Shown in pieces: positions 12,743-36,120 of a stretch of DNA of 37,344 nt (the stretch's first letter is position 1; the number at the start of each line of letters is the position of its first letter). The DNA is taken from contig JAFXAR010000066.1 of assembly GCA_017516885.1 (NCBI GenBank), forward strand, positions 1 to 37,344, read 5' to 3'. The DNA comes from Bacteroidaceae bacterium (GTDB taxonomy: Bacteria; Bacteroidota; Bacteroidia; Bacteroidales; Bacteroidaceae). The position numbers and the translations under genes are program-made. The notes beneath the pieces were generated by a model. It searched no databases and was not told where the DNA came from. It saw nothing but the letters and a program-made list of their open reading frames with translations.

Positions 12743-12784
12743 GAGTACAGAGTACAGAGAACAGAGTACAGAGTACAGAGTACA
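12743..12784. repeat. heptamer array 1 (GAGTACA x6)
   Basis: Six consecutive 7-base units of GAGTACA; the third is GAGAACA. It starts directly after the second gdhA end copy. Confidence 0.85.
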
Positions 12785-12787
12785 GAA

Positions 12788-12843
12788 CCGCTTTCCGTTT
12801 TCAGTTTTCCGCTTTCGGTTTTCAGTTTTCAGCTTTCAGCTTT
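12788..12843. repeat. heptamer array 2 (CAGTTTT-like x8)
   Basis: Eight consecutive 7-base units of the form CNGYTTT: CCGCTTT, CCGTTTT, CAGTTTT, CCGCTTT, CGGTTTT, CAGTTTT, CAGCTTT, CAGCTTT. Only three bases separate it from array 1. Confidence 0.85.
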
Positions 12844-12855
12844 AATGAGCGCAGC

Positions 12856-12903
12856 GTATAAACAAAAACAAATCCCGAGATTGGGATTTGTTTTTGTTTA
12901 TAC
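12856..12903. terminator. perfect 21-bp-stem hairpin upstream of the permease gene
   Basis: GTATAAACAAAAACAAATCC at 12856-12875 (plus C at 12876) pairs perfectly with 12883-12903 around a 6-base loop. A T-rich tail follows on the + strand. It probably ends gdhA-side transcription. Its right arm overlaps the -33 region of the next promoter. Confidence 0.75.
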
Positions 12904-12922
12904 ATATTTTTAACTATCTTAG
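12893..12922 (+). promoter_or_regulatory. probable promoter of the AmpG-like permease gene
   Basis: TTTG (12893-12896), an 18-base spacer and TATCTTAG (12915-12922) give a near-consensus Bacteroidales promoter 30 bases before the ATG. The -33 element lies within the right arm of the terminator hairpin. Confidence 0.5.
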
Positions 12923-19300: not shown

Positions 19301-22300
19301 ATATTAAGATGACCATTCTCAAACTCCTTTTCGTACCTTTCCAAATCCTCACGGGACTGTTGGGCCGAATGCTCAGCCGCTATAAAAATAGGTTTCTGCA
19401 TGTAAACACGCCTATGCAAATCACTGAAAACGCCATTGTCAATCTGCTCTTTTAAAGCCTCATCAATCCATGCGGCAACCTTCTCCTCATCTGCCTCGCC
19501 CGACTTGAAAGGGAAATATGGAGCATGAAACTCCTTTTTTACCTTGTACCGCTCAAAATTCCCCTTTCCAATGTAACCGCTCATGCGTGGGCTGTAGCCA
19601 CAGAAAGCCACATCGACAAACACATTATCAACAGGGCACAAATAAGTCCTGTCATGCAGTTGCAACCGTACATTTGCGCCAAGCAGGTCAAGCATATAGC
19701 CTTTATTTTCACGGTCGGTCAATTCAAGAATATTCTCTGTAATAAATCTCCAGGCCTCTAATAAGAGATTATTGACCACTCTAACCTTCTCTTCATCAAA
19801 GCCACCGGCATCGTTATACCCAAGCACTGCACACAAAAGCAGGACAAGACGGTTCTGGCCATCTTCCAGAACACCTCTCAGCGTCTGCTTTACCATAGGC
19901 CATTTGCCCACTGGTTTTCCTTCCTTACGCAAATCAGAACTCTGAGGATAAACGGCCGACGTATATGAATTTTGAGTAAGGTAGTTCTTTTGCTCACCGG
20001 CAATCATATAATGCTTGTTCCCTCTAATGAAATAGTCAAGGCAAATCTTCAAATAATCCTGCCAATCCTCATCACAGCATCCTTTTTCCTTAAGTTTCTG
20101 CGGACATTTGGCATTTCTCAGTTTAGGATACGAAAGCTTTACCAATCCTAATGTTTCAAGAGAATTGGCGCGTTTTGGAATCCACCCGAACTGGTCAACC
20201 ATAAGAGCCCAAAGATATGTGACGGTATTCTCTGCTGCATTTCTGCCTTTGGCATTCTTTATATGCTGGAACAGTCTTCTGAAATCGGAATCATTTTCCA
20301 GAGCACGCACAATTTCCGTCCACTCCGTTTCCTGTGGCGGAGGAACTATGCTATTGCCGTTCCTTTTGGCTTCAAGTGCATCAAACCTGCTTTTTAATAC
20401 AGCAGGCAAAACAGAACGAATTTCATTATAACCCTGATATTCCGCCTCCTCTTCAGGAGTAAGCCCGCCATCCTGTACATTTTCAATCCTTTTGTCGGCA
20501 AGCTTATGAAATATTGACGACCTTATCCATGAGCGCTCAACATCCTGGTTCAGCCCCATGGCAAAGCGCGCAGAACCTTGACGGTTGTCTGTGAAGGCTA
20601 TATACTTCCTGCCGCTGTACAACACATCGGCATCTTTCGTATCTGCAGCTTCGGCCTGGTCCAAGAGCAGTGTAGACAGAATACGGCCCATTTGAACCGC
20701 ACTCGCCCGCAAGTAATTCAGTACCGTAATCCTGTTTCCGCAATGCGGACACAGGTCGGCATTATTTTCTGAGTGCCTCAATGACTTATAGACGACACCC
20801 TCTTCAGCATCTTCAGATGCTATCTCAATCCTGTTCCTTTCAACATTGAACACATGAGAATCCTCTCTTGCAAGCCGGCGCATGCATTTGCGGTCGGGTT
20901 TTGCAAAATAGAAAGGAGTATATCCGTCGACCTCCCTTAAAGCCCCTGCCACAGTTTCATTTTCCTCATCCTCTATCAAATCCCTATTGACCTCAAAGAA
21001 CGGATTGCTATCAAGGTCAAGGGCATTCACATGCATTCTGTACCCCTCGGACGTACTGGTTTCGCCGGTCACTATTATACCGCCGCACGAGGGACATGTG
21101 GCAATCTCAAGCAATCTTGATTTGCACGAAGGGCAATTAGTGTTTTGAACAGTGGTCAAGCTGCCAGTCTTCAAGCGGAAATCCCTGTGCCTGCTGCATT
21201 CATCATTAACACAAGTATACACTCCGCTTATTGACCTCACAAAGAAATGCGCCCTTGTAGGCAACAGGGCCGACTGCGAGCCGTCGGCATTCAAAGAATC
21301 CACCTTGTCTCCAAGAGCATCAATCAGTTCCAGCGCCTTGACCGTATCATTGCACCTTCTGCTGTCAATCTGCTCTACAATCTCCCTTGCACCAAGAACC
21401 GGGTTAGTGTTTATTTTCTCACGAATCCTCTTAATGCAGTCAAGAGTGATTTTTGTTCCGTACTTTTCATTTATGGCAGAAATCGCCTCTTGCGCTTTTC
21501 CCGCATCCATATCAGGAACTATCCTTCTGCCGCCAATAACTACTATGTCATCAACAGGCTTACCGGTCAATTGCGACACAAAAGTCTTAAGTTTCAGTTC
21601 AGTGTTTGGGTCTTTTTCATCGCCTATTGTTGCCGATGTTACGGCAAAATTTACATTTTCAGGCTTTACACCGAATGCATCAAGCACACGTTTGAGCTGC
21701 AACGACAGCTCAGCCGCAGATGAACCGGTATAGGTATGCGCTTCGTCAAGCAGTATCCATTTCAGCTTGCCCTGGGATTTTTCAAGAATAGACTTGTCCT
21801 CGGCCCTCACAAGCATATAGTTCAGCATTGTTGGGTTTGTAAAAAGAATCTGAGGCGGATTGCGCCTGATTTGCGGACGTGTAACAAGCTGAGGGTAATA
21901 TTGCTGGGTAACCCTGTCGCCTTCATCCGTCTTAATTGTATCGCCATTATATATTGCATAGGTGATTTTATCAGGGACAGCCTTGCACCAGGCGTCAATA
22001 CGTTTCTGCTGGCTCTTCATTAAAGCATTGAGCGGATAAAGGAATATCGCCTGCACGCAACCTTTTTCGTTGCTCCTTGCAATGTCCTGCAACACTGGAA
22101 TCATAAAGCACTCTGTTTTGCCTGAACCCGTACCCGACGTTACAACAATAGTCTTTCCCTCTCCCGAAAGCATTCTCCTCCAGCTCTCTGTCTGATGCTT
22201 GTAAGGATGCCTTTCCTTTGGGAAACGGTACTCCTCGTCAACCTTGTTACTGCTCAGCGCATCTACAAATGAACTTTCCAATATATTAAGTCCCGCAGCA

Positions 22301-22494
22301 TGCCCTTCAAAATTACAGTCACTGCTTTCCCATGGGAAAATAGACTGAAAGACCGGTTCAGACAGCAGGGGCTCTTCCTCCATTAGCAGATTGCGCAAGT
22401 ATTCCTGCTCCCTGACTTTTCCCCTAAACCACATGGAGGCCATGGAGTCAATAAGCATTTCACGTGCCGAAGTATAGAACTTAGAGTAATTCAT
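16360..22494 (-). CDS. druE: DruE-like giant DEAD/DEAH helicase (Druantia signature gene)
   Basis: 2044 residues. Helicase motifs run in order: Walker A GTGSGKT (121-127), DEAH (250-253), SAT (287-289). The C-terminal helicase lobe has TTMEMGVDIG and QRAGRAGRR (~1080-1105). Zinc-ribbon cysteine pairs occur at ~425-468 (CPSC...CPSCGG), near 600 (CPHCGN) and at ~1370-1400 (CNACGY...CPKCGA). A DUF1998-like segment ends in GGAGYSTLF and the cluster CGCERSCTGCL (~1595-1635). An extra ~400-residue tail follows. Size and domain order fit DruE of Druantia anti-phage systems. The start codon shares one base with the druH stop (TAATG), so translation is coupled. An Lhr/YprA-type helicase outside Druantia is the alternative. 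Confidence 0.82.
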   Translation of the reverse strand: MNYSKFYTSAREMLIDSMASMWFRGKVREQEYLRNLLMEEEPLLSEPVFQSIFPWESSDCNFEGHAAGLNILESSFVDALSSNKVDEEYRFPKERHPYKHQTESWRRMLSGEGKTIVVTSGTGSGKTECFMIPVLQDIARSNEKGCVQAIFLYPLNALMKSQQKRIDAWCKAVPDKITYAIYNGDTIKTDEGDRVTQQYYPQLVTRPQIRRNPPQILFTNPTMLNYMLVRAEDKSILEKSQGKLKWILLDEAHTYTGSSAAELSLQLKRVLDAFGVKPENVNFAVTSATIGDEKDPNTELKLKTFVSQLTGKPVDDIVVIGGRRIVPDMDAGKAQEAISAINEKYGTKITLDCIKRIREKINTNPVLGAREIVEQIDSRRCNDTVKALELIDALGDKVDSLNADGSQSALLPTRAHFFVRSISGVYTCVNDECSRHRDFRLKTGSLTTVQNTNCPSCKSRLLEIATCPSCGGIIVTGETSTSEGYRMHVNALDLDSNPFFEVNRDLIEDEENETVAGALREVDGYTPFYFAKPDRKCMRRLAREDSHVFNVERNRIEIASEDAEEGVVYKSLRHSENNADLCPHCGNRITVLNYLRASAVQMGRILSTLLLDQAEAADTKDADVLYSGRKYIAFTDNRQGSARFAMGLNQDVERSWIRSSIFHKLADKRIENVQDGGLTPEEEAEYQGYNEIRSVLPAVLKSRFDALEAKRNGNSIVPPPQETEWTEIVRALENDSDFRRLFQHIKNAKGRNAAENTVTYLWALMVDQFGWIPKRANSLETLGLVKLSYPKLRNAKCPQKLKEKGCCDEDWQDYLKICLDYFIRGNKHYMIAGEQKNYLTQNSYTSAVYPQSSDLRKEGKPVGKWPMVKQTLRGVLEDGQNRLVLLLCAVLGYNDAGGFDEEKVRVVNNLLLEAWRFITENILELTDRENKGYMLDLLGANVRLQLHDRTYLCPVDNVFVDVAFCGYSPRMSGYIGKGNFERYKVKKEFHAPYFPFKSGEADEEKVAAWIDEALKEQIDNGVFSDLHRRVYMQKPIFIAAEHSAQQSREDLERYEKEFENGHLNILSCSTTMEMGVDIGGISEVVMNNVPPKSANYLQRAGRAGRRRETKALALTFCAPNPIGTYTWHHPEYPITHVTETPLLKLESRQLIQRHVNALIFSYFVQKLIEQGNSAQGNAPGVIKVTSNLGDFFAPAGGGCFFDKFLDEIDRISGNNVPEIAASYERLVAGTGLESVPLSDAAYITKKNIAEVKNTFSMHLESIEKSLRALNGSDGRAAVKGAIERQKRNLLETSLLAFLAENAFLPSAGIPTGLVECQLGMNEKKEQPTMHLSQAISAYAPGSQVVRNEWIYEPAGIRIKTEYDDSTRYILQKCNACGYTTINYGSALCDCPKCGAQNSMHGLKGMNMSLEQRFTEVVEPAAFSTAWGDKPTRRMNTRSSMNFIQPVFLRMDPWEDKDSSAKMMMRCSGQNTEILFYNKGNSGYGFAFCPYCGRMESEKELAANTVMAGHKHLSTGMPCPGGENNGSSVRRHVLLVGRYQTDFVEIKFFDRENELITDSDTLYSLGVILSRKLTELLGVNDGEIDFGYDSISHSIFIYDTALGGAGYSTLFREYKDSVLELAYKTLKECGCERSCTGCLIDRRSQWYLNYLNRKKALEWIETERKSRIAPAEIRNVLPDANAVTTDFTTELYRLSRNRDIKEVKIFIDSDYSLWRPADFPYERIILEMGLSGVSAAFVLDRKIALSSCPPSVSSVVMSVLLKYNFVYCRNGLAGGLRPLLSVTFSNGKVKTYFGNGVNRTYSEKWGSGDVFATFNDCGLKYENVDAGSILERIAQSDDEVMFNSRLKDDCLLSTFCNLLTSGNESKWKKIKDALRNCSVSIEYSDRYLMTPLSCMLFAHLAASMKNELNLEISDVSVIVARIDNRYMQDREETNVADDFVSNDRRNEFLSAAVDELCGVSPTIRDSGYVEHERCMIIRAGEMELCIRPDAGIGNGWKPFGYENSSVTDADFECDWERDMKLFNQKKNYKGILYTVSFNRWVRTAD

Positions 22495-25400
22495 TATCTG
22501 TTTTTATTAGGATTTACAATATATTTTAATGTTTTGAAAAACACATCGCTGTATGTCTCCTTGAAGTATCTTCGGTAGAAATTGACAATGCGGGCGTTTT
22601 CCCTTTTTTCATGCGAGAACAGACTGGTACAGCCATCAACGCATGCAGTATTTTCAGCGGCGCACATTGCCGACTCAAGCATAACACGATACGAAACAGG
22701 CATACTTTCGTTATTATAATATCTGCCTCTCAGGCTGTGCCTTATAATTGGCAAATCGCTATTGGTGTCAGTCAGTCCATGAATCTTTGTCTTGTACTTA
22801 TTTATCTGGTATGGGTAAAATGGAGTTCCCTGTCCAATTTCTCCGGCAGATATGTACATCTTGAATTCATCGGCCACATCAATTGACAGAGTGGTTCTGA
22901 GTATATCGGATAACAGTTCAAGCAGATGCTCTAACTTTGCAAACAAGAAACATTTAACAGAATCAGGCGCTGCAGCTTCCATATTTTTAATCTCATTTTT
23001 CCACACGCCTGCAGGAATCCAATGTATGGCCGTAACCATTTCCTGCTCAAAGCCTTCAACATCCTGAATAAGCACATCGCCGCATCCGTTCAGCCACATG
23101 GCTATTACAAATTTTGCCAGCAGTTCAGGCCTCCGGCATGCCGCCCTAAGCCCATCATACGTCCTGAACGGCAAATCATGGCGAGAACAAATTTCAAAAG
23201 CCTTGCAAACCTTTCTCCATGCAGTGCCCATAAACACATCTTCCTCGGTCAGCCTCGCAGTCCACACCTCTACCCTTTCAAAGGAATTAGCCAGCCTTGT
23301 GCTTTCATCAAAATCAATTTCATTCAGATTAAAATATTTAGGAACAATCCTGCGAGCGGTTTCTGCCCCTGAGAAAACAATTATCTCCTTGCAGCCGCAC
23401 TCCTCGGGGACTGAAAACAGATTGGCATCCTCTGCGTTCCTGACAAGTTCCACCGGATAGAGTTCTTCAGGGTCAATGCCCTCGTCTACCGGGATTGCAT
23501 AAAGAGTTCCATCATATTCAATGAGCGACGAATCATCAGCGCTCCTGTCAATCACACGGATAGAGCCATTTTCTATAGTTGATTCCAGCACAAAACGCCT
23601 GACAAGAATTTCTCTACCAGAGACATTCAGAACAACAGCACTGCTCCTGTCAAAACTGTTTGCACCGTACAGATTGAACATTCTGACTATCAAATCGTGA
23701 TAATCGGAAAGCGGAATCAGTCCGTTGCACACCCTGCCTTTCAAATGCCTTACAGCGTTGCTTCCATCCGTTTTGTCCGACGTATATGAAACATCAATGC
23801 ATCTGTTAGTTCCGCCGTGGCTAATTATGTTATATCGATAAAGGTTTGCAAAAGAGATGGTCTTGCCGTCGGTTACAACATTCCCATCCAAGTCGGTTAT
23901 CATTATGCCGTCAAATGGAATTGCCACAGAAAGCCTCAAAGGCGGATTTCCTTGTTTATATATTCTGAAGGAGCATACCGATGGACATACCGAAGAACCT
24001 TGCTTCCTGCTCACACGCCACGAATTCTCCCCGGCATATTCTATATTCAAATTATCAGTCAATTCAATCTCTGGACGCATATCTGAATGGCACGAGCAGA
24101 GCAGTTCCGTGGACGAAGGACGCTCATTGCGCGAACTGAACGACAAACCGCCTATTGAATAGAATGTTTCAACGACCGACTTGCCATCGGGATACTCAAC
24201 CTTAATATCAACAAGACCCAAAGGCAATACGGATGCCTGTCTTAGCCTTTTCCACTCTCCTGCCCTATCGGTATGCAATTTATATGAAGTTTTTACAGCA
24301 TTCTGGCTAACCCTGTTCTTTTCGCCATCGTACACTTTGATATACGGTACATCCGACATCAATTTATAATTTGCATCCTCCACCCACGAAATATAGTTGC
24401 CCGAAAATTCCGCGATGTATTTCGTAAACTCGTTTGTAAGGTTCAAAATTTCACCGGTAAGCCTATTGCCAAGAGTAACAGAAGAGCAGAACTCCCTGAA
24501 ACCATACTCTTCTCCATTTATTTTCATTGTTCCCGCCCCTTCGGCAGTCCACTCCGTTGAGAAAACAACGATATTCCTTTCAGAATTTGCAGTCTGTCCA
24601 TTGCTCCAGACATTCTCGTCAAGCATTTGAAAGAGCTGAGGATAATCAAAATTAGGAGGGTAACATCCCGGCACGGTAAGAAACAGCCTGTCATCATTGT
24701 CACATCTTACCTTTATTTCAATCACAGTTTCACCTCTCCACAGAATATCCCTGTTCATGCCTACGGAGATTCTTGTATAAGCAGCGTTCAGTAGAGTTCC
24801 ATCATCATCGCGGTTAATTGACTTGCGCACATATTTGCCAACAAGAGTGCCAGCAACAAAAATATCAAATGAATAGCATGTTGAAACATCCAGACCCGGA
24901 ATATCATCGGAAGATATATCCTTTACAGCATCCATATTGAATAGCAGACACCCCTGACCCTCATCGGCTGTACTCAGTTTCCAATAAAGCGACAACGGTT
25001 TTGTTCGCCGTTCTCTTTTAGCCCTTGAATATTCCCTTTTCAGGGATTTAGTCAATTCAGAGAGCGCCTCATCCTCAGCATCATAAGGCAGCAGTTCGCT
25101 GTCGCCCATTATTATGGCGTGCGCAATCTGCATTGCTACGTCATAAATATTGTCATTCTTGAACGCTTTGCCCAAATACGAGATACAGTTAAATTGATGT
25201 ATAATGGAATTATCCCTATTATTCCAATCGTAGTTTATAACAGAGAGTTCCCTTACAAGCCCGGCAAGAAAACGCGAGAAATTTCCAAAGCCTTTGTCAT
25301 TCTGCCTTATATACGTTACCGGCAACCCGCCTTGGTTGAGCAGTGTACGGAAATATTCAGTGCCTTTTTGCGAGTGTATAAAAGTATATTTATGCTTCTT

Positions 25401-25718
25401 GAGGGCCGCGCGCGCCGCATCGAACAGTTCCGAAGCAAAAGCCGCCCGCAAGCCTATTCCGGCTGCCACATCTTCCTTTGAAGGTATATTTCCCTTGTAA
25501 TCACGCCTCCACCATTCGGCATAGCACAGCGCCGCCTCCTCGGCGTATTTCTCCAACTCGTAACTATGGGCGCACAAGGTTTCTCTAAGTTCCTTATATT
25601 CAATAGCATTCAACTTGAATTTCCAAAGAGGGAATTTATCAGGAAATACCGCCATCCCGCGAGATTTCAGAATCCCATGCAGAGCAGCGTGTGAATTATC
25701 AGAATAGTCAATACTCAT
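22494..25718 (-). CDS. druH: DruH-like protein (Druantia type III partner)
   Basis: 1074 residues from the ATG at 25718. No enzymatic motif was recognised. The protein is long, mixed alpha/beta, with an acidic-basic central part and an aromatic-rich C-terminus (FYRRYFKETYSDVFFKTLKY). Size, position directly upstream of a ~2000-residue DruE-like helicase and the TAATG coupling fit DruH of type III Druantia (the STY4851/ECs_5259-type proteins). The open frame can be extended to a TTG at 25769, but the promoter -7 box (25751-25758) lies inside that extension, so MSIDYSDNSH is the better start. The assignment rests on context and size more than on motifs. Confidence 0.7.
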   Translation of the reverse strand: MSIDYSDNSHAALHGILKSRGMAVFPDKFPLWKFKLNAIEYKELRETLCAHSYELEKYAEEAALCYAEWWRRDYKGNIPSKEDVAAGIGLRAAFASELFDAARAALKKHKYTFIHSQKGTEYFRTLLNQGGLPVTYIRQNDKGFGNFSRFLAGLVRELSVINYDWNNRDNSIIHQFNCISYLGKAFKNDNIYDVAMQIAHAIIMGDSELLPYDAEDEALSELTKSLKREYSRAKRERRTKPLSLYWKLSTADEGQGCLLFNMDAVKDISSDDIPGLDVSTCYSFDIFVAGTLVGKYVRKSINRDDDGTLLNAAYTRISVGMNRDILWRGETVIEIKVRCDNDDRLFLTVPGCYPPNFDYPQLFQMLDENVWSNGQTANSERNIVVFSTEWTAEGAGTMKINGEEYGFREFCSSVTLGNRLTGEILNLTNEFTKYIAEFSGNYISWVEDANYKLMSDVPYIKVYDGEKNRVSQNAVKTSYKLHTDRAGEWKRLRQASVLPLGLVDIKVEYPDGKSVVETFYSIGGLSFSSRNERPSSTELLCSCHSDMRPEIELTDNLNIEYAGENSWRVSRKQGSSVCPSVCSFRIYKQGNPPLRLSVAIPFDGIMITDLDGNVVTDGKTISFANLYRYNIISHGGTNRCIDVSYTSDKTDGSNAVRHLKGRVCNGLIPLSDYHDLIVRMFNLYGANSFDRSSAVVLNVSGREILVRRFVLESTIENGSIRVIDRSADDSSLIEYDGTLYAIPVDEGIDPEELYPVELVRNAEDANLFSVPEECGCKEIIVFSGAETARRIVPKYFNLNEIDFDESTRLANSFERVEVWTARLTEEDVFMGTAWRKVCKAFEICSRHDLPFRTYDGLRAACRRPELLAKFVIAMWLNGCGDVLIQDVEGFEQEMVTAIHWIPAGVWKNEIKNMEAAAPDSVKCFLFAKLEHLLELLSDILRTTLSIDVADEFKMYISAGEIGQGTPFYPYQINKYKTKIHGLTDTNSDLPIIRHSLRGRYYNNESMPVSYRVMLESAMCAAENTACVDGCTSLFSHEKRENARIVNFYRRYFKETYSDVFFKTLKYIVNPNKNR

Positions 25719-25750
25719 ACCGTCAGACTGTATATAGCTTTTTGTTTGTA

Positions 25751-25782
25751 CAAAGTAACAAATATACAATTATTTTCACAAA
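25751..25782 (-). promoter_or_regulatory. promoter of druH-druE
   Basis: Minus strand: TTTG (25779-25782), a 20-base spacer, TTACTTTG (25751-25758), one base off TAnnTTTG. The start codon at 25718 is 32 bases downstream of the box. Confidence 0.6.
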
Positions 25783-25907: not shown

Positions 25908-27305
25908 ATGGATACACAGAACTGCAAGCAGAGGTGCTACAACAACATCATTCGTCCGCAATATACCCCCGAGAAAATATCAAGGCTTAACGATGACGAA
26001 ATTTTTGTATTCGGAAGCAACCTTGCCGGACATCATGGAGGCGGTGCTGCAAGAGTTGCACTCTTTCACTTTGGAGCAATAATGGGCAAAGGTACGGGAA
26101 TTCAGGGGAACAGCTACGCAATCCCCACAATGCAAGGCGGAACAGAGACAATAAAGCCCTATGTCGACGATTTCATAAAGTTCGCACGTGAACACACAGA
26201 ATTGTTCTTTTATGTAACCCGCATAGGCTGTGGAATAGCAGGTTTCAAGGACATTGACATTGCCCCGCTTTTTGCCGAGGCGGCATCATTGAAGAACGTA
26301 TGCCTTCCCGAATCCTTTGTCCGAATCATAGACCGGCCACTGCCCGCTGAAATCAAGAATATCGTATATGGACAGATGCGCACTCTTGTCGATTTGCTCA
26401 AGGCATTGAACAAAACCGAAAGAATTGAGAGCGCAGATGATGCCGAGGCAAAGCTCCAGAAACTAATTGAAAGAAATGCGCGATACAATGACGATTATGC
26501 ACGCCTGGCTTTAAGAGTCCTGCAGCAGCTAATGCATAGCCATACAGAAAAAGGAGAGCCCATTGACATTGACAAACTTGAAAAGGAGCTTATAGATTTC
26601 AATAAAACCGAAGGACACGATACAGAAGAACTTGTATCCCGAATATACTACCGCTATTCAGCAGCTAAGATTATCAAATACATACAGTTCCTGAACGATT
26701 TCAGACGGTACACAAATTACGAGCAGATATTAAAAGACTTGCCAAGCATAAGTTTCAGTAACTGCTCAGCAAACGATGAAAAGCATTACTACTGTTTCAA
26801 TGAATATGCCCTGTACAGTTTAATGTACATCATAAATACAGACTGGGAAAGTGTAACAAAAAAGGGCATTCTTGACAACGACGCTCTTGAGGAGACAATA
26901 TTCGGACGCTACGAGCGCATAGTCTCAAAGTTCGGAATCGAAGGGCTAATCAAGATGGCCTACGGCGATGTTGGATGCCATCCAAACATTCAAGGACCGC
27001 TCCACAATGACAGCCATAAAATCCATGGCCCATTCTTCATGGTTCATGGCAGGCATATTGAAAAAGGCTGTTCCGACTTCCGCCGCTGGCCATGGAAAAG
27101 CGACAGTTTTGAAATGTCATTTGCATTGGAGATTTTAGAGAATGATGACAAATATATCCATATCAGCAAGAACGGTTTCAGTTACGCCTATGTGCCAAAG
27201 CACGATTACTCCCTGCCGGTATATTCAGCTATGGGCAAAATGCATTTCGATACAGAGGAGGAGAAAATTGATTTCATAAACAAGTCAAAAGAGAATGCTG
27301 ATTGA
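25908..27305 (+). CDS. A1S_2505-like (macro-like) N-domain fused to an unknown C-terminal region
   Basis: 465 residues. Residues ~28-140 match a small phage- and island-associated family (A1S_2505-type) by IFVFGSNLAGHHGGGAARVA, GIQGNSYAIPT and FYVTRIGCGIAGF. The glycine-rich loops recall nucleotide- or ADP-ribose-binding macro domains, but ligand binding is inferred. Residues ~145-465 are largely helical with no known motif. A His/Gly-rich patch (GCHPNIQGPLHNDSHKIHGPFFMVHGRHIEKGC) is striking and could bind metal. The gene leads a rightward operon and overlaps the following radical SAM gene by 11 bases. It diverges from druH-druE across ~190 bases. Confidence 0.6.
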   Translation: MDTQNCKQRCYNNIIRPQYTPEKISRLNDDEIFVFGSNLAGHHGGGAARVALFHFGAIMGKGTGIQGNSYAIPTMQGGTETIKPYVDDFIKFAREHTELFFYVTRIGCGIAGFKDIDIAPLFAEAASLKNVCLPESFVRIIDRPLPAEIKNIVYGQMRTLVDLLKALNKTERIESADDAEAKLQKLIERNARYNDDYARLALRVLQQLMHSHTEKGEPIDIDKLEKELIDFNKTEGHDTEELVSRIYYRYSAAKIIKYIQFLNDFRRYTNYEQILKDLPSISFSNCSANDEKHYYCFNEYALYSLMYIINTDWESVTKKGILDNDALEETIFGRYERIVSKFGIEGLIKMAYGDVGCHPNIQGPLHNDSHKIHGPFFMVHGRHIEKGCSDFRRWPWKSDSFEMSFALEILENDDKYIHISKNGFSYAYVPKHDYSLPVYSAMGKMHFDTEEEKIDFINKSKENAD

Positions 27306-28179
27306 GTTTCATGGAAAGCATATTGCAGTAAAAGAGCACGACTGCAGTTTAGGCGAGCTCTCTCCGGCAAAAATTGCCCCCTTTGTAAACCTCTTCGTAA
27401 AGGTTACAAATGGGTGCAATGCCCGCTGCCCTTTCTGTTCAAATGCAAGCAGCCCTGCCACACCGGTTCCATTCAACACCGGCAAGCTTTTTGATGCCAT
27501 AAGAGAACTGCGCGACAAAGGAATTAGAGTAAACAGAGTAAACATAACAGGCGGCGAGCCATCAGTTGCATCACCGCTTGTTACCGGAATCTTGCAACGC
27601 ATGCAGGATAATGAATTTGCCGGTCTGCATCTGCACCTGAACACAAACGGCCTTCTCCCCGAATCAAAGCAACTAATGCTCCACCCCCGCTGGGACAGCA
27701 TTTCAATCTCGCTTCATCACTACAATATCGCCAAGCTGTCGGAACTCTACGGATGCGAGATTCCCAATGACGCCTTCAGCTTTAAAGGAGTTGATTTACA
27801 AAAAGTAAATGCAAGCTGCAATCTAATAAAAGGATACATTGACTGCGCCGAAGAAGCCGCCAAAATGCTGGACTTCACACTTGAGTTAGGAATTCCGCGA
27901 ATAGGATTTGTCGCACTAATGAAAATAAACAACTACTGCCGGGAACATTTCGCAGACCTTGAAGATATACATTGGCAGGAGATACCACATGTCTATTTCA
28001 CAAAGTCAATGAACAGAGGTGCCAGCTGCAAGTGCAGCAACTACCTATACAACAAAGATTTGAAGATTCTGGAAATATACATGCGCAATTACGCCAACCC
28101 CCATTACTGCGAATCGTCATTAGTCTACGACGGCGAATATCTGCGCCAGGGATTCCATGACAACAATATAATATTTTGA
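27295..28179 (+). CDS. MoaA-like radical SAM enzyme
   Basis: 294 residues. The radical SAM cluster motif CNARCPFC (C41, C45, C48) binds the [4Fe-4S] that cleaves SAM. GGEP follows at 86-89 and binds SAM. Three C-terminal cysteines (C245, C247, C272) lie where MoaA and SPASM-like enzymes hold a second cluster, so an auxiliary cluster is plausible. It lacks the viperin context and no partner substrate peptide is visible. Its start overlaps the previous gene by 11 bases and its stop touches the next start. The substrate is unknown. Confidence 0.8.
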   Translation: MLIEFHGKHIAVKEHDCSLGELSPAKIAPFVNLFVKVTNGCNARCPFCSNASSPATPVPFNTGKLFDAIRELRDKGIRVNRVNITGGEPSVASPLVTGILQRMQDNEFAGLHLHLNTNGLLPESKQLMLHPRWDSISISLHHYNIAKLSELYGCEIPNDAFSFKGVDLQKVNASCNLIKGYIDCAEEAAKMLDFTLELGIPRIGFVALMKINNYCREHFADLEDIHWQEIPHVYFTKSMNRGASCKCSNYLYNKDLKILEIYMRNYANPHYCESSLVYDGEYLRQGFHDNNIIF

Positions 28180-29451
28180 GTGCCCATGACCATTGCCGAA
28201 CTCTTTGAAACAAGGAAAGCCGATTTGCGCTGGAACACCTCCTACCCGCTCTCACCCGATGACTGGAAGGAGTACCGTGTTCATGGCCGGCTTCCTTTCA
28301 GCAACGACATGAGCCTCTCGTTTTACATACACATTCCCTTCTGCAGACAGTTATGCTCATTCTGTGAATACACAAGAATGTTATGCCCCGCAGAAAACAC
28401 CCAGGAACTCTATCTCAGGACAGTAGCCCTGGACATACAGCGCTTTAAAGAGGAGCATAAAGGACGCAAGCTATTAGGGTTTGACATTGGCGGAGGGACA
28501 CCAACCTCATTGTCAGAAGCAAATTTCTACTGTTTGATGGAAGTCTACCGGGAGGCAATTGCAGGAATGCCACTCTCCGATGACTATGAGCCAAGCATTG
28601 AAGCAACCTTCAACACACTATCCAGCAGCAAGCTGCACGCCATGGCAAGCAATGGGTTTCAGAGACTCTCACTAGGAGTGCAGTCCTCATGCAAGTCCTT
28701 GCTCCACAGCCATAGCCGAGTGAACTGCGATGAGCAAAACATGGCCGAATGGCTGAATGCCGCCCATGAAGCTGGCATCAAGAAAGTAAACCTTGACTTC
28801 ATGTATGGTCTAAAAGGACAAGACGAATCCACCATCATCCACGACCTTGAACTGATAGAGCGCCTTCATCCACAGCAGGTGACACTGTACGAACTAAGAA
28901 CCAACATGCTTGCCGGCCAGGAATCATTCTCAAAGAACGAACTCTATTGCCAATACACCCAGTATTACAGCGGACTAATTAAAATGGGATACAATGCCCA
29001 CTTTGGGCAAAACACATTTTCCGTGAACAGGCACGATGAAGGAACATCATCGTACCTTCGCAAAAGGATGCTAAATGGCGCGCCATACAAAGGCTTCGGA
29101 TTAGCCGCACAAAGCATGAGCAGCCACGGAGTTTCATATAACATAGGCAAATTGTCATGCAACCCGCACCAAGTGCTGAACGCAACCGGCTACCCCGAAG
29201 AATACACCTACATGCTGCCACCGCATGAATTAGCATCGAAATATCTGGCAGTTTCAGCATACAACGGCTCATTTAGCACAAAACGGCTCAAGGATTTTGG
29301 CGCAGACAATGAGCAATTGTCGCTGATACTTGATTTCTGTTTTTCAAACGGACTATTACGCAAAGGAAAAACTGAGCGGGTATACATCACCCCAAAAGGT
29401 TTCATGCACTACGGTGCTCTATTCTCCCTTTTCATAAATCCAAAACCTTAA
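28180..29451 (+). CDS. HemW/HemN-like radical SAM protein
   Basis: 423 residues counting a GTG start that follows the previous stop without a gap; an ATG at 28186 is an equally good start. The motif FYIHIPFCRQLCSFCEY (C55, C59, C62) is the HemN/HemW form of the radical SAM cluster. The residue after the third cysteine pair is not cysteine, unlike true coproporphyrinogen dehydrogenase. GGGTPTSL (~108-115), FQRLSLGVQS and GFGLAAQSMSS match HemW-type proteins. The C-terminus looks like a winged helix (LLRKGKTERVYITPKGF). It may act on a special substrate or insert heme for its operon partner; this is not known. Confidence 0.8.
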   Translation: MPMTIAELFETRKADLRWNTSYPLSPDDWKEYRVHGRLPFSNDMSLSFYIHIPFCRQLCSFCEYTRMLCPAENTQELYLRTVALDIQRFKEEHKGRKLLGFDIGGGTPTSLSEANFYCLMEVYREAIAGMPLSDDYEPSIEATFNTLSSSKLHAMASNGFQRLSLGVQSSCKSLLHSHSRVNCDEQNMAEWLNAAHEAGIKKVNLDFMYGLKGQDESTIIHDLELIERLHPQQVTLYELRTNMLAGQESFSKNELYCQYTQYYSGLIKMGYNAHFGQNTFSVNRHDEGTSSYLRKRMLNGAPYKGFGLAAQSMSSHGVSYNIGKLSCNPHQVLNATGYPEEYTYMLPPHELASKYLAVSAYNGSFSTKRLKDFGADNEQLSLILDFCFSNGLLRKGKTERVYITPKGFMHYGALFSLFINPKP

Positions 29452-29466
29452 AATCTACATACAGAT

Positions 29467-29988
29467 ATGGATAAACTAACGAAAGAGCAACGGCATCGAT
29501 GCATGTCATCGATAAAGAGCAAGAATACAAAACCGGAACTGCTGGTTAGAAGATTCCTGTTCAGCCGTGGTTTTCGTTACAGGCTCAACCACCCCCGCTT
29601 GCCAGGCCATCCCGATTTGGTGCTGCGGAAATACAGAACCGTCATTTTTATAAATGGCTGTTTTTGGCACGGACACGAAGGATGCAAACTGTATAATATA
29701 CCTAAAACAAATACCGGCTATTGGGCAAAAAAGATAAAGCGCAACCAGGAACGGGACAAGGAAGTCAAGCTCAAATTAAACAAAATGGGCTGGCACTATA
29801 TTACAATATGGGAATGCGAGCTAAAGCCATCAAACAGGGATAAAACATTGGAATCCCTGCTTTACACATTAAATAGGATTCTATTGCTTAACTATGGAGC
29901 AAAAACATACAAAACAATAGAGGAAGAAACATCTATAATGGCTGCAGAGAATAAAGATGCCGGATATTTTAAAACAACTCAAGCATAA
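29467..29988 (+). CDS. vsr: Vsr very-short-patch mismatch endonuclease
   Basis: 173 residues. Vsr nicks DNA 5' of T:G mismatches that arise when 5-methylcytosine deaminates. Conserved features are present: the N-terminal MSSIKSKNTKPELLVRR, the catalytic aspartate region LPGHPDLVLRKYRTVIFINGCFWHGHEGC, and the zinc-binding His/Cys residues around it, then RDKEVKLKLNKMGWHYITIWECEL. The last ~35 residues are an unusual tail. The start is 15 bases after the HemW-like gene, so it is probably co-transcribed. Its likely partner methyltransferases are ~4-6 kb away on the other strand, beyond the NrtR-like pair. Confidence 0.92.
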   Translation: MDKLTKEQRHRCMSSIKSKNTKPELLVRRFLFSRGFRYRLNHPRLPGHPDLVLRKYRTVIFINGCFWHGHEGCKLYNIPKTNTGYWAKKIKRNQERDKEVKLKLNKMGWHYITIWECELKPSNRDKTLESLLYTLNRILLLNYGAKTYKTIEEETSIMAAENKDAGYFKTTQA

Positions 29989-30180: not shown

Positions 30181-30199
30181 TTGCGTAAAAATAACGCAA
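30181..30199. promoter_or_regulatory. upstream operator-like palindrome (site 1)
   Basis: TTGCGTAAAAATAACGCAA, with TTGCGT/ACGCAA arms. The same 19-base design recurs at 30233-30251, 52 bases downstream (about five helical turns), so both would face the same side of the DNA. Likely bound by the adjacent regulator. Confidence 0.7.
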
Positions 30200-30203
30200 A
30201 ACG

Positions 30204-30235
30204 TTTGACAAATTAAAATATTCCGCTTAATTTTG
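30204..30235 (+). promoter_or_regulatory. promoter of the Nudix-HTH/ADP-ribosylglycohydrolase operon
   Basis: TTTG (30204-30207), a 20-base spacer and TAATTTTG (30228-30235) match the Bacteroidales consensus exactly. The -7 box runs into operator site 2. Confidence 0.75.
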
Positions 30236-30251
30236 CGTAAATTTAACGCAA
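30233..30251. promoter_or_regulatory. operator-like palindrome overlapping the -7 box (site 2)
   Basis: TTGCGTAAATTTAACGCAA, near-perfect palindrome. It overlaps the last three bases of the -7 box and ends 6 bases before the ATG. Binding here would block transcription, pointing to autorepression. Confidence 0.75.
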
Positions 30252-30257
30252 TAAAAT

Positions 30258-30950
30258 ATGAGTGAATATAATTTTTGCTATAAATACCCGCATCCAGCGG
30301 TCACTGCCGACTGTGTAATTTTCGGTTTCGACGGTTTTTCCATCAAGGTACTTTTGATTCAGCGAGGCATTGAGCCGTTCAAAGGCAAGTGGGCTCTCCC
30401 CGGTGGCTTTATGAACATTGACGAAACTGCCGAAGAATGTGCAAAGCGCGAGCTTGAAGAGGAAACAGGGCTGAAGAATGCTTCGGTTGAGCAGTTCTAC
30501 ACATTCTCCGACGTAAACCGCGACCCTCGTGAACGAGTAATCACTGTAGCTCATTACGCATTGGTAAAGCTCGCGGAAGTCAAGGGCGGCGACGATGCAG
30601 CATCGGCGCGCTGGTTCTCCATGGACGAAGTGCCTAGACTTGCTTTTGACCACGACCGCATCCTGCGTATGGCGGCAAGCCGCTTGAAGGAGCGCATCTG
30701 CTTTGAGCCCATCGGCTTCGAGCTGCTGCCAGAGGTTTTCACTATGACCGAACTCCAAAACCTCTACGAAGCCATTCTGGAAGTAAAGTTTGACCGCCGC
30801 AACTTCTACAGCAAGATGCTCAAGCTTGGCATACTTGTTGAAACCGAGCCGCGCCCCGAATGGGCGTCGCGCCGCATGCCGACGAAGTACCGCTTCAACG
30901 CCGCCATGTACGCCGAACTGAAGCAAAAAGGATTTAGACTGGAATTTTAA
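30258..30950 (+). CDS. Nudix-HTH transcriptional regulator (NrtR/AraR-like)
   Basis: 230 residues. An N-terminal Nudix domain carries an intact catalytic box, GGFMNIDETAEECAKREL followed by EEETGL (GX5EX7REUXEEXGU), at about residues 50-73. A C-terminal winged-helix (~155-230: MTELQNLYEAILEVKFDRRNFYSKMLK) binds DNA in this family. NrtR uses ADP-ribose as anti-repressor ligand, while Bacteroides AraR of the same fold senses arabinose. The downstream ADP-ribosylglycohydrolase makes ADP-ribose the likely signal. The intact Nudix box means it may also hydrolyse the ligand. Two matching palindromes lie in its own promoter. The next gene starts 13 bases on. Confidence 0.88.
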   Translation: MSEYNFCYKYPHPAVTADCVIFGFDGFSIKVLLIQRGIEPFKGKWALPGGFMNIDETAEECAKRELEEETGLKNASVEQFYTFSDVNRDPRERVITVAHYALVKLAEVKGGDDAASARWFSMDEVPRLAFDHDRILRMAASRLKERICFEPIGFELLPEVFTMTELQNLYEAILEVKFDRRNFYSKMLKLGILVETEPRPEWASRRMPTKYRFNAAMYAELKQKGFRLEF

Positions 30951-30962
30951 AAAGCACACACT

Positions 30963-32785: not shown

Positions 32786-34000
32786 TTACCACTGTTTGCC
32801 GTTCGTAAGAACTTCGGTTATTTTTTGCCAATTAAAGGTTAATCCTTTGTCTTTGTCAAAATATCTGTTGTTTTTACATTGCAATAAGCCAAATTTATTC
32901 CACAATTTCAGTTCATCCCTTACATAACTACCTTTGCTGTCAGTTTTTACAGCATTTGGTTTACGTTTGCCAATCAATCCTCTTTCAGTTAATTCTATAT
33001 CAAGAAGCTGCTTAAACTCCATAGATGAGTCAATCATAACATAGGAATCCTGAATGTCGCTGATAATGTGAATTAAATCCAAATGGCGTCCTACTGTCAA
33101 AAATAAATAAGCAATTGCATTTTTAAAATTAGCACTATCAGGACCATACTTGTTGCCTATCTCCAAAAGTCTATAACCTAATTCACTTAACTTACCTTCT
33201 TTACTAGTCCATAGTCCAAGTTGCTCAAATGGTATTCGGTAGTTTTGTTTATATGAACCATAAGAAGTTACAATCTTAGTGGCCGGACATCCATTTTCAT
33301 CCAAAATAGGGTTGCCATCTTTATCAAGCAATTCCTTTGTTTTGGATGCTTCTACTTTTCTTGCATTACCTTCAAAGTCAAAAGTTTTTCCTGTTGTTAA
33401 TTTTTTCCAAAATTCAGGGAAAATATGATCGGTATAGGTATCACCACTTTCACTTGAATAAAGAAAACTTAACCGAAGTAAATCATATACTTCAAAGTGA
33501 CTCATATCTCTCCACCAGCACCAGAAGGTTTTACTTACTTGTTGTGAAGGTTTGACCTTGGCACCAGTTCTTACATTCTCTATAGCTTTGAGAATTTGAA
33601 CATCAAAAGTATTTGGATTATATGAGTACAATGAAATTGGGGTTGCATGCATCGCATCTGAAAGCAAAACATCCCTAAAATATTCTGCTATAGGGAAACC
33701 ATCATCTGCAACTTCCGGAACAATTAACCCACTATAGGTATGATGTTGTAAATAGGTTATACTTTGTCCCAAGCCACAGACATATTCCCTTTTACTTTGC
33801 ATTGGCGGTTTGTATTCCAATGCATAAGTAACTTTATTCTCATCATCATAACAAACAAAATCAGGTCTAGGCCAGCCCCAATCACCAATTCTTGAAATTG
33901 AAGGTGAAAAGACTTGCTTATAAACAGAATTACTTTTTCTTATTTGACTGAGAATAAAACCGCCAGTCTTTTCTGCTCCTAAATCGTGTTCTTGTGCCAT
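32786..34000 (-). CDS. putative type II restriction endonuclease (PD-(D/E)XK)
   Basis: 404 residues. Near the N-terminus, RPDFVCYD (P46-D47) followed 15 residues later by LEYKP (E62, K64) gives a PD-(D/E)XK catalytic layout. The C-terminal ~110 residues look like a winged helix (GLIGKRKPNAVKTDSKGSYVRDELKLWNKFGLL). I do not recognise a named enzyme. It is the last gene of the operon, 4 bases after a cytosine methyltransferase, and converges on the ADP-ribosylglycohydrolase fusion. Position next to m5C methyltransferases and the nuclease motif together support a restriction role. Codon use is AT-rich. Confidence 0.7.
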   Translation of the reverse strand: MAQEHDLGAEKTGGFILSQIRKSNSVYKQVFSPSISRIGDWGWPRPDFVCYDDENKVTYALEYKPPMQSKREYVCGLGQSITYLQHHTYSGLIVPEVADDGFPIAEYFRDVLLSDAMHATPISLYSYNPNTFDVQILKAIENVRTGAKVKPSQQVSKTFWCWWRDMSHFEVYDLLRLSFLYSSESGDTYTDHIFPEFWKKLTTGKTFDFEGNARKVEASKTKELLDKDGNPILDENGCPATKIVTSYGSYKQNYRIPFEQLGLWTSKEGKLSELGYRLLEIGNKYGPDSANFKNAIAYLFLTVGRHLDLIHIISDIQDSYVMIDSSMEFKQLLDIELTERGLIGKRKPNAVKTDSKGSYVRDELKLWNKFGLLQCKNNRYFDKDKGLTFNWQKITEVLTNGKQW

Positions 34001-34004
34001 ATTA

Positions 34005-35030
34005 TTATTCTTCTAGCATTTGTTTTACATGCTTGGCTAAAGCTTCAGCCAATTTTACTGGTACTGCATTACCAACTTGTATGCATTGATTTTGTCTTGA
34101 ACCACAAAATACCACATCATCAGGAAATGTTTGTATTCTTGCAGCTTCTCTTACCGTCAAACTTCTATTTTCTGTAGGATGCAATGGGAAGGCATTATGC
34201 CCTGGCACCATTGTTGTTGCAGGTCTTTTTCTTGATAGTCTTTTGAAAACATGACTGAAGTTCTTGATGGTATGATCAACAAAATCACTTCTTGAACCCT
34301 TTGAAACCTCTTCAGGCAATCCATCTTGTGGTATACCTTCACCTTCAGGAATACATTTTATTCTTTCAGTGACAATAGCATTATGCTTCATTGGAATATG
34401 ATTTGGAAAGTTGTTTTCCTTTCCAACCAAATCCATAATAGCATCACCAACAGTGGCAAAATGTGTGTTGTCAGTGATATCTGGTTCAGGAAATTCTGGT
34501 GTTTGAGCTAAATCCTCACGAACGCCAAGAAAAAACAACCTGTATCTTTTTTGAGGAACGCCATAGTTCGTAGCACAAAGTACTTTGGATGTTATTTTAT
34601 ATCCAATAGCTTTATACTCTGCTTCTATAGCATCCTTAATTTCCCCTTTGCCTGCAGAAAGTAACCCTCGAACATTTTCCATCAAGAATATCTTAGGTTG
34701 AATTACCTTAACAAATCTGATAAATTCAAACACAAGTTCATTTCTTGGGTCTCTTACCAATCTTTTACCGATAGTAGAAAATCCTTGGCATGGTGGTCCT
34801 CCAACAATAACATCTATTTTACCTTTGTAAGGGAGGAGCTTTGACTCTTCAACAGTTCTTATGTCGCAATCCCACACAGGGACATTTGGGTAATTTAGAC
34901 GATGGGTTTCCAATGCGGGTTGCCAAACCTCCAAGGAAAACTCAGGTTTAAAGCCCTGATTCATAAATCCCCTTAATAAGCCACCGGCGCCACTAAATAA
35001 ATCAATAAATGTAAAATCATTTTCACTCAT
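34005..35030 (-). CDS. DNA (cytosine-5) methyltransferase 1
   Basis: 341 residues, transferring a methyl group from SAM to cytosine C5. All key motifs are present: DLFSGAGG (I), GGPPCQGFS with catalytic C81 (IV), ENVRG with E118 (VI), QKRYRLFFLGVR (VIII), RSLTVREAARIQTFPDD (IX) and QVGNAVPV (X). The target-recognition region (~200-285) contains PGHNAFPLHP. It overlaps the upstream paralogous methyltransferase by 8 bases and is followed 4 bases later by the endonuclease gene. Confidence 0.95.
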   Translation of the reverse strand: MSENDFTFIDLFSGAGGLLRGFMNQGFKPEFSLEVWQPALETHRLNYPNVPVWDCDIRTVEESKLLPYKGKIDVIVGGPPCQGFSTIGKRLVRDPRNELVFEFIRFVKVIQPKIFLMENVRGLLSAGKGEIKDAIEAEYKAIGYKITSKVLCATNYGVPQKRYRLFFLGVREDLAQTPEFPEPDITDNTHFATVGDAIMDLVGKENNFPNHIPMKHNAIVTERIKCIPEGEGIPQDGLPEEVSKGSRSDFVDHTIKNFSHVFKRLSRKRPATTMVPGHNAFPLHPTENRSLTVREAARIQTFPDDVVFCGSRQNQCIQVGNAVPVKLAEALAKHVKQMLEE

Positions 35031-36057: not shown

Positions 36058-36120
36058 TCTTACTTCTTCGTAATAGTCCAACCGTCAGCTTCAGCCATTT
36101 TAAGGACAGACTGAAGTTTA

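What the first reader, a model, noticed from the sequence alone, without database searches (positions are those of the whole stretch)
25908..29988. Candidate undescribed system: macro-like protein + two different radical SAM enzymes + Vsr in one operon, divergent from Druantia
Seen: four genes packed with an 11-base overlap, a 0-base gap and a 15-base gap, reading away from a druH-druE pair. The first encodes an A1S_2505/macro-like domain fused to a ~320-residue helical region with a His/Gly patch. The next two are a MoaA-like and a HemW-like radical SAM protein. The last is a Vsr endonuclease. Known: A1S_2505-type proteins occur in phages and islands; neither rSAM family alone implies defence. 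Inference: the pair may build or modify a small molecule, nucleotide or peptide used in defence, with the first protein as sensor or effector.
Basis: partly seen in the sequence, partly recalled or inferred. Interest (0 to 1): 0.8.

Follow-up and report, generated by a model that had tools for sequence, protein, structure and literature searches.

The report
Swappable ADP-ribose-linked radical SAM cassette
A gut bacterium carries a patchily distributed gene cassette, found in other gut bacteria too, in which two radical-chemistry enzymes travel with a protein whose parts are swapped between strains and whose partners handle ADP-ribose; its job is unknown and it may be a new kind of defence or conflict system.

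Summary
The genes are as described. The three-gene core is conserved: of 39 loci collected (named ones labelled Bacteroidales, Bacteroidia or Bacteroidetes), R2 follows R1 in 38 (the 39th contig ends) and the first protein's C-terminal domain (Cdom) lies just upstream in 35. Four corrections. (1) Vsr does not belong: 0 of 38 other loci; a two-methyltransferase R-M module lies nearby. (2) A Nudix regulator and an ADP-ribosylglycohydrolase (30258-32741) do belong: the Nudix gene recurs in 12 of 38 other loci, in 9 of them with a shared operator. (3) The first protein is a mosaic: Cdom follows A1S_2505, DUF1810+A1S, ADP-ribosylglycohydrolase+A1S, MreB-like, tubulin-like or no domain, and Cdom itself is exchanged between otherwise 83-93% identical operons. 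(4) A regular tie to defence genes was not shown. Best reading: an accessory, ADP-ribose-linked system in which the rSAM pair acts on or with Cdom (inferred) and the exchangeable domain supplies ligand or target. Cdom has only weak, chance-like library matches. Macro homology of A1S was not confirmed, but fusions tie it to ADP-ribose enzymes.

The parts
25908..27305 (+). P1: A1S_2505 domain (aa 32-137, about 26001-26318) fused to the conserved C-terminal domain 'Cdom' (aa ~143-465, about 26334-27302); invariant or nearly invariant Cdom residues include G155 Q156 T159 D162 N168 K254 Y268 G343 C357 H358 P364 P375 C388 E402
   Evidence: NF049995 1.5e-41; for Cdom only weak, chance-like matches (Pfam 0.098 below cut-off, PADLOC 0.013, PHROGs 0.0069, PDB designed repeats); alignment A2 of 33 rows
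27295..28179 (+). R1: MoaA-type radical SAM enzyme with CxxxCxxC (41/45/48) and three C-terminal cysteines C245, C247, C272; N-terminal extension that varies with the Cdom type
   Evidence: PF04055 4.6e-14; profile to MoaA 2fb2 2e-7; 35-row alignment, mean column identity 74%; cysteines; type-specific positions 3, 16, 22, 30
28180..29451 (+). R2: HemN/HemW/STM4012-like radical SAM enzyme, CxxxCxxC at 55/59/62
   Evidence: NF006067 130 bits against a cut-off of 380; HemN 1olt 2.4e-36, NocN 1.7e-24; hhalign to STM4012 99.7%
30258..30950 (+). Nudix-wHTH (NrtR/AraR type) regulator with intact Nudix box and RDPR motif; part of the recurring set
   Evidence: PF00293 and PF21906; nearest solved relative AraR 5bs6; box intact in 12 of 12 complete copies examined; in 13 of 38 rows including the window (one cut by a contig end)
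30963..32741 (+). Phosphatase (PTP/DSP) domain fused to ADP-ribosylglycohydrolase (ARH)
   Evidence: PF03747 6.2e-62, PF22784 3.7e-16; ARH genes or fusions in 12 of 38 rows including the window
30181..30199 (.). Operator copy 1, TTGCGTAAAAATAACGCAA
   Evidence: related sites printed upstream of the Nudix gene in 7 other loci
30233..30251 (.). Operator copy 2, TTGCGTAAATTTAACGCAA, starting 52 bases after copy 1
29467..29988 (+). Vsr endonuclease: inside the run of genes but judged NOT part of the cassette
   Evidence: 0 of 38 other loci; G+C 40.6% against 47.6% (R2), 43.6% (P1) and 36.0% (R-M genes)
32786..36972 (-). Neighbouring type II R-M-like module (weak REase_II match, two C5 cytosine methyltransferases) and a GmrSD_N/DUF262 gene; the likely partner of Vsr
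16360..25769 (-). Druantia III druE and druH: a neighbour, not part of the cassette
   Evidence: PADLOC DruE3 2653 bits, DruH3 1242 bits; no match in the 38 other loci

Best explanation
This is an accessory, recombining gene cassette of Bacteroidales, tied to ADP-ribose. Shown by sequence: its core is Cdom + R1 + R2; the N-terminal domain in front of Cdom changes repeatedly, mostly among A1S_2505 and ADP-ribosylglycohydrolase (both ADP-ribose-linked) and DUF1810 (role unknown), with single MreB-like and tubulin-like cases; in about a third of loci it comes with a Nudix-wHTH regulator with intact Nudix box and an ADP-ribosylglycohydrolase, usually with a shared operator in front. Inferred: R1 recognises Cdom through its N-terminal extension and, with R2, acts on it or with it. 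The most likely form is a post-translational radical modification at the conserved Cys/His/Glu site (C357-H358, C388, E402) that makes P1 active. The N-terminal domain then provides the ligand or target, an ADP-ribose-bearing molecule in most versions. ADP-ribose or NAD imbalance, as caused by phages, toxins or NAD-consuming defence, would relieve Nudix repression. The repeated exchange of Cdom and N-terminal domain suggests a conflict role rather than housekeeping.
For: Core: R1-R2 in 38 of 39 loci, Cdom directly upstream in 35 of 39; in draws of 393 order genomes R1 and Cdom were each found in 2, the same two. Modularity: eight N-terminal states among 36 Cdom proteins, at least 11 changes on a tree of 33 labelled rows; in L038 an MreB-like domain sits in front of the last 41 residues of A1S. 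Cdom exchange: L035 and L040 are 93% identical in DNA over Nudix-ARH-DUF1810-A1S, 31% in Cdom protein, and DNA identity resumes (83%) from about R1 residue 27. Coupling: partial Mantel Cdom~R1 given R2 0.73 (0 of 2000 shuffles), Cdom~A1S given R2 0.08 (378 of 2000), Cdom~R2 given R1 -0.30; the 4 type-specific R1 sites lie at residues 3-30, none found in R2 or A1S. Two Cdom proteins share one R1-R2 pair in L039. ADP-ribose link: ARH and Nudix genes; elsewhere A1S is fused to Nudix (L012) and ARH (L015); Nudix box and RDPR intact in 12 of 12. PMC4666351 (passages): AraR proteins lack an intact box, and SoNrtR Arg98, an ADP-ribose contact, is Gly89 in BtAraR; in my reading of the alignment the window has Arg91 there. 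Operators: 13 of 20 printed sites in 586 kb lie within 100 bases upstream of a Nudix start.
Against: No chemistry is shown; Cdom has no recognisable fold and structure prediction was off. The Cdom-R1 coupling can be explained by one recombination tract between two conserved blocks, without contact. N-terminal labels are partly inherited: 12 changes for all 8 labels against a shuffled mean of 19.7, several long branches, and some rows are near-copies (L046 and L059 come from one assembly). Nudix and ARH genes are missing from about two thirds of loci, some cut by contig ends. PMC4666351 also says the box is impaired in NAD-metabolism NrtR regulators, so an intact box may mean an active hydrolase rather than a typical NrtR sensor. 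A1S resembles Macro only in short motifs: hhalign 3.6%, below one control (4.6%) and above four others (0.2-1.1%). A regular tie to defence genes was not shown. The MreB-like version is a single metagenome-assembled contig, the tubulin-like one a single genome with a match just under the Pfam cut-off, and neither obviously fits ADP-ribose. In the window the operators precede Nudix-ARH only; upstream of P1 there is at most a shortened operator-like GTAAATTAC.
Confidence: 0.4

Rival explanations
1. Small-molecule reading: P1 binds an ADP-ribose- or NAD-type nucleotide, and R1 (like MoaA or viperin) with R2 converts it into a modified nucleotide used as signal or antiviral, or destroys such a signal; Cdom is a substrate-handling subunit, not a substrate.
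For: R1's best PDB match is MoaA and it also matches viperins weakly. Three C-terminal cysteines could leave an open iron site as in MoaA (general knowledge). ADP-ribose enzymes accompany it.
Against: The N-terminal domain can be absent (8 of 36 Cdom proteins; 4 of those 8 have a separate A1S gene in the same locus) or replaced by MreB- or tubulin-like domains. R1 matches to MoaA and viperin are weak and largely cover the common rSAM core. Cdom conservation is low (mean column identity 41%) and it is exchanged, odd for a catalytic subunit.
Confidence: 0.25
2. Repair or salvage reading: an ordinary accessory pathway that cleans up ADP-ribose, ADP-ribosylated molecules or damaged NAD derivatives, with no role in conflict.
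For: ARH, Nudix and A1S recur together; 6 of 10 neighbours scanned in other loci are ordinary enzymes.
Against: Very patchy (1 of 395 phylum genomes; 2 of 393 order genomes; 1 of 16 in the second genome's family), at a site where 15 of 15 same-genus stretches lack the island genes (some stretches short), and Cdom and N-terminal parts are exchanged. It does not explain two conserved rSAM enzymes.
Confidence: 0.2
3. One reading: P1, R1, R2 and Vsr form one defence operon, perhaps working with Druantia.
For: Gene packing in this window; Druantia III next door.
Against: Vsr in 0 of 38 other loci, Druantia in 0 of 38; Vsr has a ready partner in the two C5 methyltransferases.
Confidence: 0.04

Closest known systems
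STM4011-STM4015 cluster of Salmonella (two rSAM proteins with STM4013, STM4014, STM4015)
   Same: R2 aligns with STM4012 over most of its length (hhalign 99.7%, 376 columns); both clusters pair a HemN-like and a smaller rSAM protein.
   Different: R1 is not detectably related to STM4011 beyond the rSAM cysteine region (21.5% probability over 54 columns); I did not search the loci for STM4013-4015 relatives; function of that cluster unknown to me, 0 papers in the library for STM4011 or STM4012.
Prokaryotic viperins (pVip)
   Same: R1 shares the rSAM core; weak PADLOC match 7.9e-9 over residues 35-143.
   Different: R1 has a conserved C-terminal CxC...C set and the partners Cdom and R2; NCBIfam viperin score 30.6 against cut-off 180.
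NrtR/AraR Nudix-type repressors of Bacteroidetes
   Same: Nudix plus winged helix; nearest solved relative AraR 5bs6; palindromic operators at the promoter.
   Different: Intact Nudix box and RDPR motif in 12 of 12; PMC4666351 (passages) says the box is impaired in AraR and in NAD-metabolism NrtR proteins. The genes behind the operators belong to this cassette.
NTP-dependent, effector-swapping biological conflict systems (PMC7159879, eLife 2020; passages only)
   Same: Swappable domains; those passages mention Nudix and Macro effectors, rare FtsZ/tubulin, and an rSAM domain thought to modify a peptide effector.
   Different: No MoxR, vWA or TRAFAC GTPase match among the cassette proteins I scanned; Cdom-R1-R2 is not mentioned in the passages I saw.
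Druantia III and type II R-M with Vsr
   Same: Lie on either side in this window.
   Different: No shared genes; Druantia and Vsr were not found in the 38 other loci.

Membership tests
Viperin (pVip) | Score over the curated viperin model | tested here: not met
   30.6 bits against 180
MoaA (GTP 3',8-cyclase) | Score over the MoaA model | tested here: not met
   40 bits against 284
MoaA-like rSAM with auxiliary cluster | CxxxCxxC plus three further conserved C-terminal cysteines | tested here: met
   C41, C45, C48, C245, C247 in 35 of 35 rows, C272 in 34 of 35; spacing differs from MoaA's (recalled); that they bind a cluster was not testable
HemN/HemW family rSAM | CxxxCxxC and GGGTP core with similarity to HemN | tested here: met
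   HemN 1olt 2.4e-36; C55/C59/C62 and GGGT in 27 of 27 rows; every NCBIfam cut-off missed, so no specific function is assigned
Macro domain (A1S_2505 part) | Profile similarity to Pfam Macro | tested here: not met
   No Pfam Macro match; hhalign 3.6% against 8 Macro proteins, controls 0.2-4.6%; only short motif likeness
Radical-SAM-matured peptide/RiPP system | Small precursor peptide gene beside the maturase | tested here: inconclusive
   No room for one between P1, R1 and R2 in the window; no common short gene noticed in the ORF lists of at least 60 aa; shorter genes were not searched
Radical-SAM-matured peptide/RiPP system | Modified residues in the substrate | not testable with these tools
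   Needs mass spectrometry
Anti-phage defence system | Regular association with defence genes | tested here: inconclusive
   Defence neighbours in this window; tallies of 231 neighbours of the other loci show PADLOC families with 1-3 members each at E up to 1e-10, with no background control
Anti-phage defence system | Protection against phage | not testable with these tools
NrtR-type Nudix regulator | Nudix-wHTH protein with palindromic sites at its own promoter | tested here: met
   ligand not testable; 148.7 bits against 400 for the curated ADP-ribose-responsive repressor model

The most novel reading that the evidence does not exclude
A new class of modular conflict system: a radical SAM pair writes a chemical modification onto a swappable domain (Cdom), arming an N-terminal module that is exchanged among ADP-ribose-handling, actin-like and tubulin-like domains, with expression released when an ADP-ribose-type signal is sensed by the Nudix repressor.
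Probability: 0.22. Interest if true: 0.92.

Novelty: categorically new. Interest (0 to 1): 0.72.

Why it matters
If the inferred mechanism holds, it would join two fields that rarely meet, radical SAM protein chemistry and ADP-ribose signalling, in one accessory cassette, and give a test bed for how bacteria swap sensor or effector domains while keeping a radical-chemistry core. It also gives A1S_2505, a domain matched in 317 phage records and named in the family library only as a phage non-structural protein, a testable link to ADP-ribose through its fusions to Nudix and ADP-ribosylglycohydrolase.

Tried and rejected
Vsr as a member: rejected (0 of 38 other loci; a C5-methyltransferase R-M-like module is near). 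Druantia as partner: rejected as a rule (0 of 38). RiPP with a separate precursor: no gene space in the window; not searched below 60 aa elsewhere. Macro identity of A1S: hhalign against 8 Macro proteins, not supported. PDB search for P1: designed repeat proteins and chance helices. R1 relation to STM4011: not supported. Viral contigs: the single-protein scan found nothing; the alignment scan found 7 distant rSAM stretches of 25-37% identity, not followed. Neighbour PADLOC tallies give families, not numbers of proteins, and had no background control, so only a weak conclusion is drawn; 238 neighbours of at least 140 aa were listed, of which 7 from L039 and L061, already scanned with Pfam, were left out, leaving 231. 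The tree omits L065, L066, L068, L070 (cut or decayed) and L093. The Mantel tests use 24 rows of two Cdom types only (22 with A1S). The operator listing printed the + strand only; L053 and L062 have a Nudix gene but no site by that pattern, and L063's Nudix gene is cut. The 39 loci are not all independent (L046 and L059 are one assembly; L035 and L036 have 99% identical Cdom and R1). Literature: 9 library searches, of which some aimed at the gene set; their listings showed no paper describing it. Passages only were seen of PMC9503650, PMC4666351, PMC12926258 and PMC7159879; the rest were listings. Most subscription papers are not held, so absence in print is not shown.
Full report
What is there. 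P1 (465 aa) carries an A1S_2505 domain at residues 32-137 (NF049995, 1.5e-41) and a C-terminal half with only weak, chance-like matches in Pfam, PADLOC, PHROGs and PDB sequences and none in NCBIfam. R1 is a MoaA-type radical SAM protein, R2 a HemN/HemW/STM4012-like one; R2 misses the cut-off of all 18 NCBIfam matches and R1 of the 25 shown of 45. The flanks are Druantia III and a module with two C5 methyltransferases, a weak type II REase match and a GmrSD_N/DUF262 gene.

Collecting relatives. One Prevotella plasmid held R1 at 60% identity with a C-domain homologue upstream and R2 downstream. A two-row R1 alignment scanned against the 84,980-species genome collection gave 36 loci, labelled Bacteroidales or families within it, or Bacteroidia/Bacteroidetes without an order, many from animal gut or rumen by their titles. 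The scan needs exact peptide seeds, so this is a lower bound, and two loci come from one assembly. The set is rare: R1 in 1 of 395 phylum genomes (single protein), 2 of 393 order genomes (profile) and 1 of 16 genomes of the second genome's family, the window's genome counted in the first two. Cdom was found in 2 of 393 order genomes, the same two.

Conservation. R2 follows R1 in 38 of 39 loci; in the last (L066) the contig ends 70 bases after R1. Cdom lies immediately upstream in 35 of 39; two exceptions are contig ends (L065, L068), one is a decayed remnant (L070), and in L045 another gene lies upstream and R1 lacks an ordinary start codon. All three genes are seen in 34 of 39. Vsr and Druantia were found in none of the 38 other loci (blastp, E up to 1e-5 and 1e-4, within the stretch held). 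A Nudix gene of 60-67% identity is in 13 of 38 rows including the window (one cut), an ARH gene or fusion in 12 of 38, DUF1810 in 14 of 38; L093 has none of these. Several loci are too short to show them.

Modularity. The 36 Cdom proteins (L039 has two) carry these N-termini: A1S alone 12; DUF1810 then A1S 9; ARH then A1S 3; none 8; MreB-like with the last 41 residues of A1S 1; tubulin/FtsZ-like 1 (31.7 bits, just under the Pfam cut-off of 33, with GVGGAG and GGTSGYG motifs); A1S without its GGG motif 1; unknown 269 residues 1. In 4 of the 8 without an N-terminal domain a separate A1S gene lies in the same locus. On a tree of R1+R2 from 34 loci the labels change at least 11 times among 33 labelled rows; they also cluster (12 changes for all 8 labels against a shuffled mean of 19.7, as low in 0 of 200), so architecture is partly inherited and partly exchanged. 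The two odd fusions are single observations; the MreB one is from a metagenome-assembled contig, although its DNA homology to L037 starts within a few residues of where the MreB match ends.

Exchange of Cdom. Cdom falls into three main types and two singletons at 40% identity. L035 and L040 share Nudix-ARH-DUF1810-A1S at 93% DNA identity over 2981 bases, have Cdoms of different type (31%), and are 83% identical again over 2485 bases from about R1 residue 27. Among 24 rows of the two larger types, Cdom distance goes with R1 distance once R2 distance is removed (r 0.73, 0 of 2000 shuffles), not with A1S distance (0.08, 378 of 2000; 22 rows) nor positively with R2 (-0.30). The four R1 positions that separate the types are 3, 16, 22 and 30, all before the CxxxCxxC at 41-48; none was found in R2 or A1S. 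I read this as recognition between R1's N-terminal extension and Cdom. A plain recombination tract between two conserved blocks is a simpler account and is not excluded.

ADP-ribose link. The 12 complete Nudix proteins examined keep the full Nudix box and an RDPR motif. The nearest solved protein is AraR. PMC4666351 (passages seen) states that the box is impaired in AraR and in NAD-metabolism NrtR regulators, and that SoNrtR Arg98, an ADP-ribose contact, corresponds to Gly89 in BtAraR; in my reading of the alignment, allowing for a three-residue tag, the window has Arg91 there. An intact box may also mean an active hydrolase. Palindromic operators precede the Nudix gene: 13 of the 20 plus-strand sites in 586 kb lie within 100 bases upstream of a Nudix start, in 8 loci, as two copies 52-56 bases apart in 5 of them, and two more precede the first gene of the operon in L033 and L064. 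Elsewhere, A1S occurs in 31 of 198 order genomes, the window's included, among them proteins fused to a Nudix domain (L012), to ARH (L015) and to a vWA-like region (L025, below the Pfam cut-off). This ties A1S to ADP-ribose by fusion, although a Macro relationship was not supported by profile comparison.

Vsr and the site. Vsr normally accompanies C5 methyltransferases (general knowledge); two lie 4 kb away, and Vsr's G+C (40.6%) is between theirs (36.0%) and R2's (47.6%), though P1 at 43.6% is not far off. In 15 of 15 stretches of same-genus genomes that hold the FKBP gene, none of the window's island genes was found after it, some stretches being short, so the block looks like an accessory island.

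Defence? Here the cassette sits between Druantia III and an R-M-like module. Elsewhere PADLOC tallies over 231 neighbours list families with 1-3 members each (only the first 25 of 92 and of 61 families are shown, in falling order of members). Of 10 neighbours chosen by size, 6 were ordinary enzymes, 1 a transposase, 1 a helicase and 2 unmatched. L050 has a helicase with a DdmD-like stretch and a DEDDh gene beside the cassette, and L048 a GajB/DRT-like helicase. No background control was run. The defence role is therefore possible, not shown.

How it most likely works. Shown: the Cdom-R1-R2 core, its regulator and ADP-ribose company in about a third of loci, and module exchange. Inferred: R1 recognises Cdom, R1 and R2 carry out radical chemistry on or with Cdom, and the N-terminal domain supplies ligand or target; I favour a modification at the conserved C357-H358/C388/E402 site. 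The main rival is nucleotide chemistry in the manner of MoaA or viperin. The searches aimed at the gene set listed no paper that describes it. I rate it categorically new as a gene system because its core domain and its combination match no catalogued kind that I could search, with the caution that the chemistry may turn out to be a variant of known radical SAM protein maturation.

Noticed in passing
window 32786-36972 (- strand) with Vsr at 29467-29988: Type II R-M-like module with two adjacent C5 cytosine methyltransferases, a weak REase_II match and a GmrSD_N/DUF262 gene; low G+C (36%).
   Followed up: partly
L061 1-7203: Upstream of the tubulin-like version lie several coiled-coil-like proteins, a protein with weak MreB/SrfB matches, one with weak MotB/OmpA matches and a trypsin-like protease in one run; it may be a separate multi-gene cluster.
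   Followed up: partly
L033 (Prevotella plasmid), L062, L064: The cassette lies in or beside a longer run with DUF1810 and DUF6717 genes; on the plasmid also a BspA-type leucine-rich repeat protein.
   Followed up: no
L018 787-1875 and L025 1495-2637: A1S_2505 fused to an N-terminal von Willebrand A-like region (L025 match just below the Pfam cut-off; L018 no Pfam match but similar sequence).
   Followed up: partly
L012 1501-2403 and L015 1498-2709: A1S_2505 fused directly to Nudix and to ADP-ribosylglycohydrolase, in genomes not among the R1 matches.
   Followed up: partly
L024 and L026: Proteins with two A1S_2505 domains in tandem; the first copy of each has an altered GGG motif (read).
   Followed up: no
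window 30963-32741: A dual-specificity phosphatase domain fused to ADP-ribosylglycohydrolase; the other loci with ARH have a shorter ARH gene or an ARH-A1S fusion instead.
   Followed up: no
window about 12740-12905: Short intergenic repeats with near-identical copies elsewhere in this and same-genus genomes (40-58 bases, seen).
   Followed up: no
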